Of a stretch of DNA of 64,000 nucleotides, positions 58,631 to 64,000 are shown one piece after another (the first letter of the stretch is position 1; each line of letters starts with the position of its first letter). The stretch covers positions 248,001-312,000 of the forward strand of contig JAGBEO010000013.1 in assembly GCA_017936885.1 (NCBI GenBank), given 5' to 3'. Under the pieces are notes generated by a model. That model saw only the letters and a list, made by a program, of their open reading frames with translations. It did not search any database and was not told the origin of the DNA. Both the position numbers and the translations under genes were made by a program. The stretch comes from Lachnospiraceae bacterium (GTDB lineage Bacteria > Bacillota > Clostridia > Lachnospirales > Lachnospiraceae).

Positions 58631-58837
58631 TTATACCCTTCTTTTCAGCTCAGGCATAATCGGCTCCAGTTCAAAAACCATCCGCTGTGTTTCATTCTCT
58701 GTCACCTCTCTTACAATTTCATTTGCTCTGTTATTGGTCTTTCTGGCCTCCTTCTGGTTCACAGCTGCCGGTATCGTCTTTAAAAATCCATAAGCACCTG
58801 CCGCCATACCCATTTGTACAAATAAAAATGCTGGCAT
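58631..58837 (-). CDS. Small hydrophobic-then-charged protein
   Basis: A 68-residue protein, start MPAFLFVQMGMAAGAYGFLK behind AAGGAGGAAAT. The N-terminus is weakly hydrophobic, the rest is charged and helical (NNRANEIVREVTENETQRM). No family recognised. It lies between the WYL regulator and the membrane-anchored gene and may be co-transcribed with the latter. Confidence 0.6.
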   Translation of the reverse strand: MPAFLFVQMGMAAGAYGFLKTIPAAVNQKEARKTNNRANEIVREVTENETQRMVFELEPIMPELKRRV

Positions 58838-58934
58838 ATTTCCTCCTTCCCCGTTATCTGTGTTTCTTAATGATAAGAATAAAATCTTCGGGTGACAGAT
58901 TCTGTCATGATCAAAAACATTCTCACAGTAGCAC

Positions 58935-58964
58935 AAAAAATCCCGGAAAACATTCTCCGGGATT
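58935..58964 (-). terminator. Intrinsic terminator after the WYL regulator
   Basis: AATCCCGGA and TCCGGGATT stem with a short loop, then six Ts on the minus strand, 40 bp past the WYL stop codon. Confidence 0.85.
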
Positions 58965-59005: not shown

Positions 59006-60019
59006 TTAAGCATACAGCTTCAATATATCTTCCAGCTTCTTCTTCATCTCATGTCGCAAAGACTCCGGCCTCAGCACTTCAATCTTGTCTCCCTGACTCA
59101 AAAGCCATATGATAATCCCCTTGCCGTAAACCTCCGCATTGATCGTACATTCGTGCTCTTTCTGCCCGATAATCTGTGCTGTTGGTAGTCTGTCAAGCAC
59201 CGGCTCTGGATTCTCCCCATAATATTTCAACTGAATCCGCATCAGCTCCCCGGCATACATAAACTGAATCCTCTTGCGGAACTCCCCTTCCTCAAACCTG
59301 TCCGCATAGGATACATGAAACTTTTCTCCTGTCTCCTTATAGGACTTAATCCTGTCTATACGAAAAATCGTAGGATAATCATATTTATGGATATGGCTAC
59401 CCTTTCCGTCATCCTCCAGAATAAAGGCATTCAGATAAAAATAATATTCCGAAAAAAGAAGCGCCACCGGCTCAATCAGCCGTGTAACTGTCTCCTGTGG
59501 CTGATCCGCCTTGGCATATTTAATCTCCATCAAGTTGTGCTCCCTGATATCCTCCCCGATCCGCCAAAGCCTGTCTTGAATGTGGCTCTTATGGTGGAGT
59601 TCCACATAGTGGAACTGTTCATTGGAGACAAGCTCCCGCACCAGCTGCATATTTTTAAACGGCACACAGCCTCCTATCATCTTTTTCAGAATACTGCCAA
59701 TTTCCCTCTTGGTAAATGCGCGGCTGGCAAGCAGGATCTTACTCACTGCAAGGATCTCGCTGTTTGACATCATGGAACCTTCAGAACCGATCATGATAAA
59801 TCCCTTTTTACTGCGGTCATACTCAATCAGACGGTGATCCAAGGCCCTGTCTGTCTTTTGTTCATCCAGAAAAGCCCGGATGTCGTCGATGTCTCGCTGG
59901 ATGGAACGCTCATCCACACCAAATCTTTTGGCTTCCTCTGTTTTGTTGATTACCTTTCCTTCAGAGAGGCGGACATATAGATCGAGGACGCGGTTGTTCT
60001 TAGAAAATTTATGACACAT
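59006..60019 (-). CDS. WYL-domain regulator of the accessory region
   Basis: A 337-residue regulator: N-terminal winged HTH (VLDLYVRLSEGKVINKTEEA, RFGVDERSIQRDIDDIRAFL) and a central WYL domain with LIEPVALLFSEYYFYLNAFI, where the name-giving Trp-Tyr-Leu positions have diverged, followed by a WCX-like C-terminus. WYL proteins of this architecture often regulate phage-defence loci (BrxR/CapW group). It starts 57 bp after the four-gene operon on the same strand and ends at a clear terminator, so it may be its last gene and its regulator. The link is inferred from position. Confidence 0.87.
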   Translation of the reverse strand: MCHKFSKNNRVLDLYVRLSEGKVINKTEEAKRFGVDERSIQRDIDDIRAFLDEQKTDRALDHRLIEYDRSKKGFIMIGSEGSMMSNSEILAVSKILLASRAFTKREIGSILKKMIGGCVPFKNMQLVRELVSNEQFHYVELHHKSHIQDRLWRIGEDIREHNLMEIKYAKADQPQETVTRLIEPVALLFSEYYFYLNAFILEDDGKGSHIHKYDYPTIFRIDRIKSYKETGEKFHVSYADRFEEGEFRKRIQFMYAGELMRIQLKYYGENPEPVLDRLPTAQIIGQKEHECTINAEVYGKGIIIWLLSQGDKIEVLRPESLRHEMKKKLEDILKLYA

Positions 60020-60076: not shown

Positions 60077-61474
60077 CTAAACAAATAATAATATAATAAT
60101 AAACATACAAAAAAATAAAATGATAATTATCGAAGATAGAATAATTCCTGCGATAGCACATTTTCTATATTTTGTCTTTCCTTTCAATGCTTTTATTCCA
60201 TCTATGATAGACCAAATTCCTCCTATAATGGAAAAAAACGAACCAACTACTGTTACTATTCCCACCCACGAAATGATACCTAAGATCAGAGACATAACAG
60301 CTTTTCTATTTATCTTCTTTTGTTCTTTATCAATATCTATCATTTCAGCCACAACTACAGGCCTGACATAATTTGACTGTGTCTGACTTGACATTGGCGG
60401 TGCTATCTCTGGTGGTCTTTCCGCTAACAATTTTGCCGTCATTATTTCTTTCTTGAAATCGACCGTTTTCACTTCTTGCACTTCTTTGGAAAACTCAGGA
60501 ATACTATTACATATTTCAGTATGAATCTTTTTAACTTTATATGACAATTCCCCATTCTCGGATAAAATAGGTGTGTCAATAACTGCCTTAATTGCACCAG
60601 CCAAAGCCCTTGTAACCCTTATCAATTTTTTCTCATTATGTGTTAAATCAGTTACAGTTATTCCTCTTCCTAATTGCCTAATCATCTCCATTGTAACCAT
60701 GTCCAATAAATTGACGCATTGCGCAAACATCTCATTCAATTCATTTAACAATTTATCAAACATTTCAGATCTATCAATAATGCCCTTACATAATGTCTCT
60801 GATGTTTTCATCTTCTCTGCTGCTGCCTCAGCTTCTGCATACATTGTTTCCGCTTTTTCAAGGTTCTCATCAGCCTTCATGCTTGCCGATATCCCTGTAA
60901 ACAAAACTATTGGTGCAGCAACAGCCGCGAGCGGAGTCATCGTAGCCGCAGTTGATAAAGCCGTTCCAGCAATTCCAATTGCCCCACCAATATCACCTAA
61001 TGCTAATACCGTCCCGGCTAAAGAAAGTGTCGACGTCACAATCGGCAAAGAACCACTTGCCGCCAGTGCAACAATAGCTCCAGCCGCCGCCCCCGCTGTA
61101 CCACTGGTCAAAGAACCAGAATATATATCAATCATTTCCTGCAACTGAATCATATCATTTTGTTCAATCTCAAAATGTGAAATTTCATTTAACCCTTCAG
61201 ATTGCCTCAATTCTATTTGTTTAATTCTATCATAAGCCCGTATAAACTGACTAATTGAATTATCCAGCACATTCTTTTTGGCATAACCCAAATTCATTAA
61301 CGCTCGTTCTGTATTTTTCTGTGCTACCTCAAGCGACTCTTTTGCTTCATTATATAGGCTTTGGGCATCTCTGGAGATTCTCTCTGCTTTTTCATTAGTA
61401 TCTTTTGCACTAATGTGACCTCCTACTCCAATAATTCCAGCAACTCCAGCAGCCACCAAAAATGGTATTGGCAT
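60077..61474 (-). CDS. Glycine-rich membrane/coiled-coil protein, operon gene 4
   Basis: A 465-residue protein with three parts: a glycine-rich N-terminal hydrophobic segment (PFLVAAGVAGIIGVGGHIS) then a coiled coil (about 25-115); a long Ala/Gly-rich hydrophobic stretch (about 123-200, e.g. SGTAGAAAGAIVALAASG) able to insert in membranes; a second helical region; and a C-terminal pair of membrane segments (about 395-460) resembling DUF4190. No family is recognised. The layout is reminiscent of pore-forming or membrane-remodelling effectors, which is inference only. AGGAGG overlaps the stop of the upstream gene. Confidence 0.75.
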   Translation of the reverse strand: MPIPFLVAAGVAGIIGVGGHISAKDTNEKAERISRDAQSLYNEAKESLEVAQKNTERALMNLGYAKKNVLDNSISQFIRAYDRIKQIELRQSEGLNEISHFEIEQNDMIQLQEMIDIYSGSLTSGTAGAAAGAIVALAASGSLPIVTSTLSLAGTVLALGDIGGAIGIAGTALSTAATMTPLAAVAAPIVLFTGISASMKADENLEKAETMYAEAEAAAEKMKTSETLCKGIIDRSEMFDKLLNELNEMFAQCVNLLDMVTMEMIRQLGRGITVTDLTHNEKKLIRVTRALAGAIKAVIDTPILSENGELSYKVKKIHTEICNSIPEFSKEVQEVKTVDFKKEIMTAKLLAERPPEIAPPMSSQTQSNYVRPVVVAEMIDIDKEQKKINRKAVMSLILGIISWVGIVTVVGSFFSIIGGIWSIIDGIKALKGKTKYRKCAIAGIILSSIIIILFFCMFIIILLFV

Positions 61475-61486
61475 AAATTCTTCCTC

Positions 61487-62941
61487 CTAAAGTACATCCA
61501 CAATGTCAGAATTTAAGTACACCTCAAACTCCTCTTCTGTTTCAAAAGCGACTCGACCACCTAGCTTTCTTGTAATTTGATTCGCCCCAGCGACAATTCC
61601 ATCCGCATCTCCGATCTGAAAAGCAAATCTCATATCTGACAATGCCCCATCAAAGCAGTCTCTATATTCTCTAAAATAATTTTCTAAGTACAATTCCAAT
61701 TCTGATCTAAATACCCTGGTCTGTTCAGCTGCTTCCTTACACTCTGCTATAATACGCAGTCGTTCCTGATGCTCCAATTCTTTGGTTTGCAATGTGTTAA
61801 TCAAATTATGATATAGACTGCTTGTCAATGTAGAGCCAATCAAGGCCCCTATAGCACCACCCACAACAGGAATTGGTATCAATGTCTGTCCCACCACCGC
61901 TGAATAACCTACCGTTGCAAGATTAAGCCCCTTATCTCCCAACTCTATTATGCACTGCTGCGTAGATATTTCTCCATCTCCATATCTTTTCAGTGTATCA
62001 CCTACTGTCATTACCGCCGTAATAACTTTTCCTGGCACATTAGATTTCGATAAAGCCTGTAAGAACTTTGAAGAACTACTAGACAAAGTATTAGATGCCA
62101 CCATCAAACCGTCACTCATCACATACCCAGTAACAACCGCTTTCCCACCATCCTCTATCGTATCTGCAATCGCCTCCCCAGCCTCCTTTTCTCCTTTTAA
62201 AACAGCCACTATATTCAAAATTCCTGACATTACTAATGTGAAAGTACCAGCCGATTTAGCCCCAGACATTCCAGCCTCATGACCATCATGCAGTATATTT
62301 TTCCCCGTTTCTATAATTTCCCTACCTCGGGTATATACCTCAGCTCGCTTTCCATCCTCTAAAGCCTGTCTTTCACCTTTCTTAGTAAAAAAAACTCCTT
62401 TCCTTTCGCGATAGTCTTTATCTTCCACATACTCTTTATTCGTCTTGCTACGTTTGGCATTATTTGTCTTACGTGAAATTACCTTTACATTTTCCTCTGC
62501 ATTTCCTATATCTTTCACATCTTCCGTACTTAGCCAAGGATTATTTTTTGTCTCCTCATAAACTTTCTCCAACGGCTTAATATGATCAGTTTCAGCCAGA
62601 TGTTTTGTCCAGTCATCACCATATAAAAGTTTCGCCTCCTTCTTTGTCAGTACAAGACGATCACCTGTATACGGGTCAAAAACTTCCGCACCATCCTTAA
62701 ATAATTCCATTTTAGCATTTCTTTTTGCTATCCCGCTATCATATAAGTTGCGATTTCCTGTATATGTATCTGGTTTTGCATATTTTTGAATTGCTTTCTG
62801 TGTGAAAACTCTTGCTGACTCAGCTGCCGCATATCCAACCGCTATATTGATACCTACATCTTTGTTTTGGTCATCCCCCTCTTCTTTTTTAGGCTCTATA
62901 TTCATGACTAAATTATCTTGTGCATTTTTAAATATATCCAT
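61487..62941 (-). CDS. HNH-motif protein with glycine-zipper membrane region, operon gene 3
   Basis: A 484-residue protein. Around residues 112-170 it has an HNH-nuclease-like module: AETDHIKPLEKVYEE, then NAEENVKVISRKTNNAKRSK, with the DH, Asn and Asn/Lys positions of HNH endonucleases. The preceding GDRLVLTKKEAKLLYGDDW belongs to the same module. From about 215 on it is hydrophobic and Gly/Ser-rich, with the glycine-zipper-like VVGGAIGALIGSTLTSSLYH, followed by a helical tail. A nuclease fused to a membrane segment suggests a membrane-linked DNA-cutting effector; activity is unproven. Confidence 0.75.
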   Translation of the reverse strand: MDIFKNAQDNLVMNIEPKKEEGDDQNKDVGINIAVGYAAAESARVFTQKAIQKYAKPDTYTGNRNLYDSGIAKRNAKMELFKDGAEVFDPYTGDRLVLTKKEAKLLYGDDWTKHLAETDHIKPLEKVYEETKNNPWLSTEDVKDIGNAEENVKVISRKTNNAKRSKTNKEYVEDKDYRERKGVFFTKKGERQALEDGKRAEVYTRGREIIETGKNILHDGHEAGMSGAKSAGTFTLVMSGILNIVAVLKGEKEAGEAIADTIEDGGKAVVTGYVMSDGLMVASNTLSSSSSKFLQALSKSNVPGKVITAVMTVGDTLKRYGDGEISTQQCIIELGDKGLNLATVGYSAVVGQTLIPIPVVGGAIGALIGSTLTSSLYHNLINTLQTKELEHQERLRIIAECKEAAEQTRVFRSELELYLENYFREYRDCFDGALSDMRFAFQIGDADGIVAGANQITRKLGGRVAFETEEEFEVYLNSDIVDVL

Positions 62942-62966
62942 ATCGCTCCTCTTCTGTACTGCTGGA

Positions 62967-63371
62967 TTAACCTAAGACCAAAGTATTCATTTTGCCGTAC
63001 ATCTCAACATATTCTTTTAGTAGTATTTCACACTCATCTCTAAACTTATCCTGAAGTCCAAATATTTCTGTCATAGATACAATACTTTTTCTCTCTTTTT
63101 CATCGTAATTGCCATCAATCATCGCCAAGCCAATTATTTCAAAAAGAACAATTTTCTTTTCTCGTCCTTCCCACTCTTCCTTTATTGTTTCAATAATCTC
63201 TGCCATTGATCTTGCTCGAATGACTGGCGGAACGTTTATTTGCATTTCATTACAATAGCTTTCTATCATGAACTGCTCTTTCTCACCAAAATCATTGTCC
63301 AAAAAGGCCATCTCATAAGCTAATTCTAAAAAAACCCTTTTTTGTTCTTCTTTTAACAATGATAAATACAT
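62967..63371 (-). CDS. TerB-like acidic protein, operon gene 2
   Basis: A 134-residue all-helical protein with the two TerB-type acidic repeats: LAYEMAFLDNDFGEKEQFMI and IIGLAMIDGNYDEKERKSIV, each A-x-x-D-G/N-x-x-x-x-E. TerB domains bind divalent metals and occur in tellurite-resistance and phage-defence-like gene sets. The match is by pattern, not by database search. It starts 2 bp after the cysteine-cluster gene, with TAGGAGG overlapping that gene's end, and leads into the HNH gene after 25 bp. Confidence 0.75.
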   Translation of the reverse strand: MYLSLLKEEQKRVFLELAYEMAFLDNDFGEKEQFMIESYCNEMQINVPPVIRARSMAEIIETIKEEWEGREKKIVLFEIIGLAMIDGNYDEKERKSIVSMTEIFGLQDKFRDECEILLKEYVEMYGKMNTLVLG

Positions 63372-63373
63372 GC

Positions 63374-63634
63374 TTACTTCCTCCTAAGTTTTTTTAATTT
63401 TCCACAAGCCTCATAATTTAGTCGATAATACTCTTCTTGGGATAGTTTGTCCCTAAAATACTCTTTATATGTCAGATCTACATTACACAGCAATGGCCTA
63501 CTCTGATAAATAATACACAATCTTGTCTCTTCATCAAAAAATTTGCAGACTCCATCCCCCCTATCCAATTCACTATATATTGATAATCCATTAAGCTGTG
63601 TACAGCACAAACCACATTTATCACATTTAAACAT
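63374..63634 (-). CDS. YkgJ-type cysteine-cluster protein, operon gene 1
   Basis: An 86-residue minimal YkgJ-family protein: CDKCGLCCTQL at the N-terminus, then CKFFDEETRLCIIYQSRPLLC, giving the full set of metal-binding cysteines in the family order. The rest is a basic helical tail. It probably coordinates zinc or an iron-sulfur cluster. First gene of the four-gene operon, with an AGGA site and a promoter about 145 bp upstream. Confidence 0.85.
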   Translation of the reverse strand: MFKCDKCGLCCTQLNGLSIYSELDRGDGVCKFFDEETRLCIIYQSRPLLCNVDLTYKEYFRDKLSQEEYYRLNYEACGKLKKLRRK

Positions 63635-63838: not shown

Positions 63839-64000
63839 GTGATTTCGTATGATCCATTATGGAAAACCATGAAAGAAAAGGGCATAACGCAGTACTCATT
63901 GATAAAGAACTTTCATTTTAGCGCCGGTCAACTGTCCCGACTAAGAAATAATTACTACGTTAGTACTCATACAATTGATATGCTTTGTAATATTCTAAAC
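63839..64000 (+). CDS. XRE-family regulator, N-terminal part
   Basis: 54 codons are visible, starting at a GTG 7 nt after AGGAG. WKTMKEKGITQYSLIKNFHF, then SAGQLSRLRNNYYVSTHTID, is a Cro/CI-type helix-turn-helix of the short HTH_26 style. It is divergent from the four-gene operon, with the three 17-bp repeats between them. It is a candidate repressor of that operon and of itself. The rest of the gene is outside the window. Confidence 0.8.
   Translation, partial: MISYDPLWKTMKEKGITQYSLIKNFHFSAGQLSRLRNNYYVSTHTIDMLCNILN

What the first reader, a model, noticed from the sequence alone, without database searches (positions are those of the whole stretch)
60077..63634. Four-gene operon combining a cysteine-cluster protein, TerB-like protein, HNH-motif membrane protein and glycine-rich membrane protein
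Seen: four AT-rich genes with gaps of 2, 25 and 12 bp on one strand inside a mobile element, flanked by a WYL regulator and a divergent XRE regulator. Known: TerB domains, HNH nucleases and WYL regulators each recur in stress or phage-defence loci. Inference: the set could be a membrane-associated, metal-dependent defence or stress system in which the HNH protein is the DNA-damaging effector and the 465-residue protein acts at the membrane. I know of no named system with this combination.
Basis: partly seen in the sequence, partly recalled or inferred. Interest (0 to 1): 0.8.

Follow-up and report, generated by a model that had tools for sequence, protein, structure and literature searches.

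The report
Bunzi-related operon with HNH nuclease arm
A bacterium carries a small membrane-linked gene set that looks like a variant of a named but unexplained anti-phage system, with the usual enzyme swapped for a probable DNA-cutting one, which suggests how the whole group may work.

Summary
In detail: four AT-rich genes (gaps 2, 25, 12 bp), a WYL regulator behind them and a divergent XRE-like ORF. The neighbourhood recurs. C and D are the core; A (Cys cluster) and B (TerB) are optional. In 299 related genomes the A subfamily has 13 strong copies, all beside or within two genes of D; equally similar A-like genes in viral contigs mostly stand alone. C matches PADLOC candidate PDC-M09B; 8 of 11 D relatives tested match PDC-M09A, but window D and its three nearest tested kin do not. 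In related loci the same D, and the C-terminal tail of C, go with other N-terminal domains: HNH, a restriction-nuclease-like type, or the core of BnzB from Bunzi (E 2.5e-139). A tail model built only from BnzB-type proteins finds the tail of window C at 2.6e-10. So this is an HNH-armed variant of a modular Bunzi / PDC-M09 / PDC-M40 group, not a canonical Bunzi. Best mechanism: D is a membrane platform that docks and restrains the nuclease by its tail; infection releases it. Defence function and mechanism are inferred. Structure models were too poor to help.

The parts
63374..63634 (-). gene A, 86 aa, eight-cysteine CxxCxxCC (YkgJ-type) protein; optional partner
   Evidence: PF03692 1.2e-7; 8 Cys invariant in 11 of 11 rows; 13 strong copies in 299 genomes, all beside or within two genes of D; A-like genes also stand without C-D in 79 of the 80 viral loci kept
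62967..63371 (-). gene B, 134 aa, TerB-like protein; optional partner
   Evidence: PF05099 2.9e-7; a TerB-type gene near D in 13 of 45 D loci; weak profile match to BnzA residues 157-295 (hhalign prob 64%)
61487..62941 (-). gene C, 484 aa: N-terminal HNH-type domain (about 41-201), Gly-rich hydrophobic middle and conserved C-terminal tail (about 376-484)
   Evidence: PDC-M09B 1.6e-13, PDC-M40B 1.5e-4; D119 H120 N151 N160 invariant in 8 of 8; tail found by a BnzB-built model at 2.6e-10
60077..61474 (-). gene D, 465 aa: core about 1-340 (helical arms around a Gly/Ala-rich hydrophobic stretch) plus a DUF4190-like end
   Evidence: aligned with 17 relatives (one, L062, lacks most of the Gly-rich stretch); 8 of 11 D relatives tested match PDC-M09A, 8.8e-25 to 2.7e-97; window D itself gives only LeoBC 3.8e-5 in PADLOC
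59006..60019 (-). WYL regulator, 337 aa, same strand, 57 bp after D
   Evidence: PF13280 4.8e-7; close WYL relatives within five ORFs of D in 11 of 45 D loci (the annotated WYL gene of L049 was not caught by that profile)
63839..64000 (+). start of a divergent 76-aa XRE-like ORF that runs past the window end
   Evidence: L003 3840-4070; XRE nature by eye
58631..58936 (-). 101-aa ORF with a D-like stretch; possible remnant of a second D
   Evidence: hits D of L050, L051, L053, L054 at 6e-5 to 2e-8; 3e-5

Best explanation
The operon is an HNH-nuclease variant of a modular membrane-platform immune system that also includes Bunzi, PDC-M09 and PDC-M40. Shown by sequence: D is the constant partner; C is a two-part protein whose C-terminal tail is conserved while its N-terminal domain is exchanged among HNH, nuclease-like (E...D...Q-x-K) and BnzB types; A and B are optional partners; a WYL regulator often accompanies them. 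Inferred: D sits in the membrane and docks the tail of C, holding the nuclease inactive; the Cys-cluster protein A and TerB protein B sense or license activation; when phage entry or another membrane event disturbs D, the HNH domain is freed and cuts DNA near the membrane (incoming phage DNA, or the host chromosome in an abortive response). The WYL protein probably keeps expression low until needed.
For: C: PDC-M09B 1.6e-13. D relatives: PDC-M09A in 8 of 8 tested (8.8e-25 to 2.7e-97). C-position relatives: BnzB 2.5e-139 (L060), 1.7e-130 (L064), 4.4e-41 (L054), 9.8e-29 (L056); PDC-M40B 6.4e-35 (L063). Of 45 D-bearing loci 39 have a C-position relative within five ORFs: 31 with a recognised enzyme type (11 HNH, 8 nuclease-like, 12 BnzB) and 8 by the tail region only. 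Tail: the model from class-1 HNH tails finds class-1 BnzB tails at 3.7e-19 to 8.5e-23, and the reverse 2.8e-18 to 1e-23; the model from three class-2 BnzB tails finds window C at 2.6e-10; among 396 other ORFs of 200 aa or more the only hits at E 0.05 (L146_8, L128_9) are themselves next to a D gene. On the D tree effector type needs 6 changes, the least possible being 2. L149 joins a BnzB core and a D-like domain in one protein (PADLOC BnzB 8.9e-41 and PDC-M09A 7.8e-16). Each N-terminal type keeps active-site-like residues: HNH D-H-N-N 8 of 8; BnzB H119 H126 H182 D186 15 of 15; nuclease-like E82, D119, Q136, K138 8 of 8. Setting: AIPR gene about 4.7 kb upstream; Azospirillum copy beside a WYL and a DUF3320 gene; a related D-BnzB locus near a MADS gene.
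Against: No functional data. Window D does not reach PDC-M09A, nor do its relatives L004, L129 and L152. Tails of either class were found in 8 of 15 BnzB-type proteins tested; L072, L073, L074 (two of them canonical Bunzi), L141, L142, L143 and L149 have none. BnzA is not found in this genome. Effector type is strongly clustered on the D tree (shuffled mean 13.7 changes), and well-supported branches force only 2 changes for HNH, 2 for BnzB and 1 for the nuclease-like type, so exchange is not frequent. A-like proteins as similar as those of the system stand alone in viral contigs (L154, 6e-31). HNH identification rests on motif residues and weak matches of one relative; no nuclease family matched the E...D...Q-x-K type. 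Structure models are poor (pLDDT 39.8 and 53.7) with no Foldseek match at E 0.001. Of ten large neighbours chosen from nine loci, 4 had a PADLOC match at 1e-10 (a DinG-type helicase, a MADS protein, a short ATPase-type stretch, PDC-S33), with no random control.
Confidence: 0.68

Rival explanations
1. A toxin-immunity or interbacterial polymorphic toxin cassette: C is a secreted toxin with exchangeable warheads and A, B or D are immunity or delivery parts.
For: Exchange of nuclease-type domains on a constant part is typical of polymorphic toxins (recalled); HNH and nuclease-like types occur.
Against: The constant part is at the C terminus and the enzyme at the N terminus, the reverse of usual polymorphic toxins (recalled); no secretion or LXG/WXG domain was matched in C; no immunity-like gene was noticed near the loci (not tested systematically); BnzB of a named anti-phage system takes the same slot.
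Confidence: 0.12
2. A metal or envelope stress-response set (Ter-like) in which the HNH-like domain is a binding, not cutting, module.
For: TerB and Cys-cluster proteins suggest metals; C and D have hydrophobic Gly-rich stretches.
Against: Catalytic-type residues of three different N-terminal domains are kept; a TerB-type gene is near D in only 13 of 45 loci; the matches of C, and of most D relatives tested, are to defence candidates (though PADLOC holds only such models and Pfam gave nothing).
Confidence: 0.12
3. A superinfection-exclusion or maintenance module of the mobile element or prophage rather than a general host defence (overlaps with the best explanation as to mechanism).
For: The operon lies near a serine recombinase and phage-type recombination genes; one copy, L152, is on a viral contig beside recombinase-like genes (by eye).
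Against: C-D occurs in Bacillota chromosomes of several families and on an alphaproteobacterial plasmid. Two viral scans with C found none, but they also missed L152, so they are insensitive.
Confidence: 0.2

Closest known systems
PADLOC candidate PDC-M09 (PDC-M09A + PDC-M09B)
   Same: C matches PDC-M09B; 8 of 11 D relatives tested match PDC-M09A
   Different: window D and its relatives L004, L129 and L152 do not reach PDC-M09A; window adds A, B and an HNH-type N-terminus; no paper in the library holds that name
PADLOC candidate PDC-M40
   Same: HNH-type effectors paired with D; L063 matches PDC-M40B at 6.4e-35
   Different: window C matches it only over residues 37-214 (1.5e-4); different tail class
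Bunzi (BnzA, BnzB)
   Same: BnzB core takes the C position beside D, and in some loci beside A, TerB or WYL genes; TerB is listed for Bunzi (PMC10952713, table passage)
   Different: window has no BnzB core and its genome no BnzA; canonical BnzB of L072 and L074 lacks the tails
Juk and Dionysus (anti-jumbo-phage systems)
   Same: membrane-acting sensor with diverse effectors (Juk), TerB protein (Dionysus), by what reviews say (PMC13282480, PMC12926258, passages)
   Different: no homology tested; a parallel in logic only

Membership tests
Bunzi | BnzB protein | tested here: not met
   window C has no BnzB match; only its C-terminal tail is related to tails of some BnzB-type relatives
Bunzi | BnzA protein | tested here: not met
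   no BnzA match at E 0.01 in G000 (2 of 14 genomes searched had one, neither the window's)
Bunzi | TerB domain in the system | tested here: inconclusive
   window B is TerB; hhalign of BnzA 157-295 to the B family gives prob 64%, to the long TerB family 0.5%; Pfam TerB does not match the two BnzA proteins at E 0.05
PDC-M09 | PDC-M09B protein | tested here: met
   E 1.6e-13; how PADLOC sets its own acceptance limit was not visible
PDC-M09 | PDC-M09A protein | tested here: inconclusive
   window D no match; 8 of 11 D relatives tested match at 1e-24 or better, L004, L129 and L152 do not
PDC-M40 | PDC-M40B protein | tested here: inconclusive
   window C 1.5e-4 over residues 37-214; L063 6.4e-35
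HNH nuclease superfamily | HNH (beta-beta-alpha metal) motif with invariant His and Asn | tested here: inconclusive
   D119, H120, N151, N160 in 8 of 8; only residues about 101-150 of the model have pLDDT near 70; Pfam matches weak and in one relative only
any anti-phage system | protects cells from phage | not testable with these tools
   needs a phage challenge

The most novel reading that the evidence does not exclude
Bunzi, PDC-M09 and PDC-M40 are one polymorphic immune system: a membrane scaffold (D, or its BnzA counterpart, with TerB) that docks interchangeable enzymes through a shared C-terminal tail, so that one kind of sensor can fire a DNA-cutting, a second nuclease-like or a BnzB-type hydrolase effector, with an eight-cysteine protein as a redox- or metal-gated switch in part of the loci (16 of the 45 D loci).
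Probability: 0.4. Interest if true: 0.75.

Novelty: new variant of a known kind. Interest (0 to 1): 0.52.

Why it matters
One review lists Bunzi among systems of unknown mechanism (PMC12926258, passage). If its BnzB slot is an exchangeable effector slot that elsewhere holds an HNH or another nuclease-like domain, then BnzB is predicted to be the toxic enzyme, D/BnzA the sensor-scaffold and, where present, the C-terminal tail the docking point. Each of these is directly testable, and it would merge a named system and two unnamed candidates into one family.

Tried and rejected
Fold route: AlphaFold models from three-row alignments were poor and Foldseek gave nothing at E 0.001; ClyA and bacterial dynamin chains appear far down the D list at E 0.4 to 1 and were not used. 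Sequence searches of solved structures gave no usable relative: coiled coils for D (best 0.0056), nothing under 0.48 for C, and a TerB-type entry at 0.16 for B. D as a homologue of BnzA's C-terminal half: only hints (PDC-M09A on Vibrio BnzA 1.4e-3; BnzA profile on the D of L129 2e-4; hhalign prob 63% over a 40-residue coil); left open. Attachment-site repeat for the element: nothing longer than 10 bp in the stretches compared. A single A-B-C-D unit: rejected, since in six HNHa-type loci (window, L004, L005, L129, L130, L152) C and D are neighbours in 6, A is present in 2 and TerB in 3; the contig of L005 begins 715 bp before C. Searches with C: no match in phage records, one in plasmids. Literature: PDC-M09 in no paper of the library; in the capped listings of the other searches I recognised no description of this set. 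The Millman et al. 2022 paper, by its DOI as I recalled it, is not held, so Bunzi's gene content comes from PADLOC models, one table passage (PMC10952713) and one table row (PMC11206119). Papers seen only as passages: PMC10952713, PMC12926258, PMC11206119, PMC12931631, PMC13282480, PMC10250203.

Caveats on counts. The 45 D loci (D profile E under 1e-15) come from 57 loci fetched because they matched C, D, A, BnzA or BnzB, so they are enriched, not a random sample. L073/L076 are near-copies, L125/L127 and L129/L130 come from genomes of one genus, L137/L147 are two pieces of one split locus, L152 was scored apart. The 8 'tail-only' loci include L054, whose BnzB core fell just under the cut-off. 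Six D loci have no C-position relative (L052, L124, L135, L145, L147, L148). The profile of A was built from 11 copies found beside C or D; the 13 strong hits are those 11 plus two new ones (G012, G195), both beside D. The tree used 29 hand-labelled rows cut to 360 residues; left out were the D loci without a clear effector label and L076, L131, L137, L144 and L147; L062 and L049 are long branches, and two long branches meet. The tail classes were labelled and 'neither tail' is the third state.
Full report
What is there. Four minus-strand genes at the stated coordinates with gaps of 2, 25 and 12 bp, 37.5% G+C against 42.1% for the window. A is a CxxCxxCC protein and B a TerB protein by Pfam. 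C has an N-terminal stretch with D119-H120, N151 and N160, a Gly-rich hydrophobic middle and a distinct tail; D has a Gly/Ala-rich hydrophobic stretch and a DUF4190-like end. Membrane placement is judged from the hydrophobic stretches; no predictor was run. A WYL regulator follows D on the same strand and a divergent 76-aa XRE-like ORF runs past the window end. To the left lie a serine recombinase, YqaJ, Rad52-like and DUF932 genes; upstream lies an AIPR gene.

Is the set real. In a draw of 299 genomes of the same family (the window's own included), the profile of A finds 28 genomes, but only 13 places are strong (1.2e-33 or better); the others are 4e-5 or weaker and lie in longer open frames (222-295 aa). 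All 13 lie beside D or with one or two genes between, by the D profile search over the same draw, which finds D in 24 of 299 genomes. So A is a recruited member of a wider family. In a draw of 398 genomes of the phylum D is found in 12. With C as a single query 13 of 299 genomes match; with D 28 of 299, 12 of them only through the DUF4190-like end. One Azospirillum plasmid has WYL, C and D in a row. C-D pairs without A and B stand in a Hungatella MAG and in a contig labelled Filifactor. One IMG/VR contig has A-C-D near genes that look like recombinases and an endolysin (by eye).

What the slot of C holds elsewhere. Own profiles of each part were run over the ORFs of 57 loci and summed: 45 D-bearing loci, 39 with a C-position relative within five ORFs (11 HNH, 8 nuclease-like, 12 BnzB, 8 by the tail region only), 16 with A, 13 with a TerB-type gene, 11 with a close WYL relative. 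PADLOC calls L060 and L064 BnzB at 2.5e-139 and 1.7e-130, L054 and L056 at 4.4e-41 and 9.8e-29, L063 PDC-M40B at 6.4e-35. A Lactococcus and a Vibrio plasmid carry a BnzA-BnzB pair (PADLOC BnzA in both and BnzB in Lactococcus; BnzB of Vibrio by own profile), the former with a WYL gene further upstream. Conserved residues of each type look catalytic: D119/H120/N151/N160 in 8 of 8 HNH proteins of two sub-types; H119, H126, H182, D186 in 15 of 15 BnzB-type; E82, D119, Q136, K138 in 8 of 8 nuclease-like (numbering of window C, L060 and L051). That the last is PD-(D/E)XK-like is my reading of the motif; no family model matched the four such proteins scanned (L051, L055; L049, L126).

The tail. Two classes of C-terminal tail were seen. 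Models built from one effector type find the tails of the other types of the same class: HNH to BnzB 3.7e-19 to 8.5e-23 and back 2.8e-18 to 1e-23 in class 1; in class 2 the HNH model finds the three BnzB-type tails at 8.6e-7 to 9.5e-11, the BnzB model finds window C at 2.6e-10 and the nuclease-like model finds it at 1.1e-25. Of 396 other ORFs only L146_8 and L128_9 were hit at E 0.05, both next to D. But only 8 of the 15 BnzB-type proteins in that test carry a tail; L072, L073, L074, L141, L142, L143 and L149 do not. On a tree of D (29 rows) effector type needs 6 changes and tail class 2, the least possible for three states; effector type is nonetheless strongly clustered (shuffled mean 13.7), and well-supported branches force only 2 changes for HNH, 2 for BnzB and 1 for the nuclease-like type. 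In the class-1 clade HNH and BnzB effectors sit on closely related D proteins (4 rows each). One protein, L149, joins a BnzB core and a D-like domain. This is the pattern of an occasionally exchanged effector on a constant docking part.

Links to Bunzi beyond the slot. BnzA residues 157-295 align weakly to the B family (hhalign prob 64%, E 6e-5), against 0.1-0.3% for three control pairs, but only 0.5% to the long TerB family that is itself related to B. A review table lists TerB for Bunzi (PMC10952713, passage). That BnzA is a fusion of B and D functions is attractive but only hinted at.

Mechanism. Shown: who is next to whom, what is constant and what is exchanged, which residues are kept. 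Inferred: D as membrane platform, tail as dock, A and B as sensors or licences, HNH as DNA-cutting effector, WYL as expression control. WYL regulators are reported to co-localise with defence loci (PMC9122601, seen in the search listing only). Juk and Dionysus show that membrane-directed anti-phage systems with varied effectors or a TerB protein exist (PMC13282480 and PMC12926258, passages); no homology is claimed. The defence setting is suggestive, not tested: of ten large neighbours chosen from nine loci, 4 had a PADLOC match at 1e-10, without a random control.

Verdict. The finding stands, with a better name: an HNH-armed variant of a modular group to which Bunzi, PDC-M09 and PDC-M40 belong. 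It is not a canonical Bunzi. Function remains to be tested.

Noticed in passing
window 58631-58936: 101-aa ORF with similarity to part of D; possible remnant of a second D copy next to the WYL gene.
   Followed up: partly
L003 8355-10073 and 7592-8171: AIPR-family gene and a RelE/Phd-looking pair upstream of the operon (AIPR; the pair judged by eye).
   Followed up: partly
L153-L231: Viral contigs carry a small CxxCxxCC protein related to A; of the 80 loci kept only L152 has C and D beside it. Role in phages unknown.
   Followed up: partly
L075 5193-7083: BnzB-like gene after a 165-aa Gly-rich protein on an IncHI2A plasmid; a BnzB-type query matched 491 plasmid records, 269 of them Enterobacter.
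   Followed up: partly
L149 6231-8630: Single 799-aa protein joining a BnzB core and a D-like domain.
   Followed up: yes
L054 6269-8683: BnzB-type effector with an N-terminal M48 peptidase domain (PF01435 1.2e-12).
   Followed up: no
window 60077-60330 (D residues about 383-465): The DUF4190-like end of D alone accounts for the match in 12 of the 28 genomes hit by D; looks like a later addition to D.
   Followed up: no
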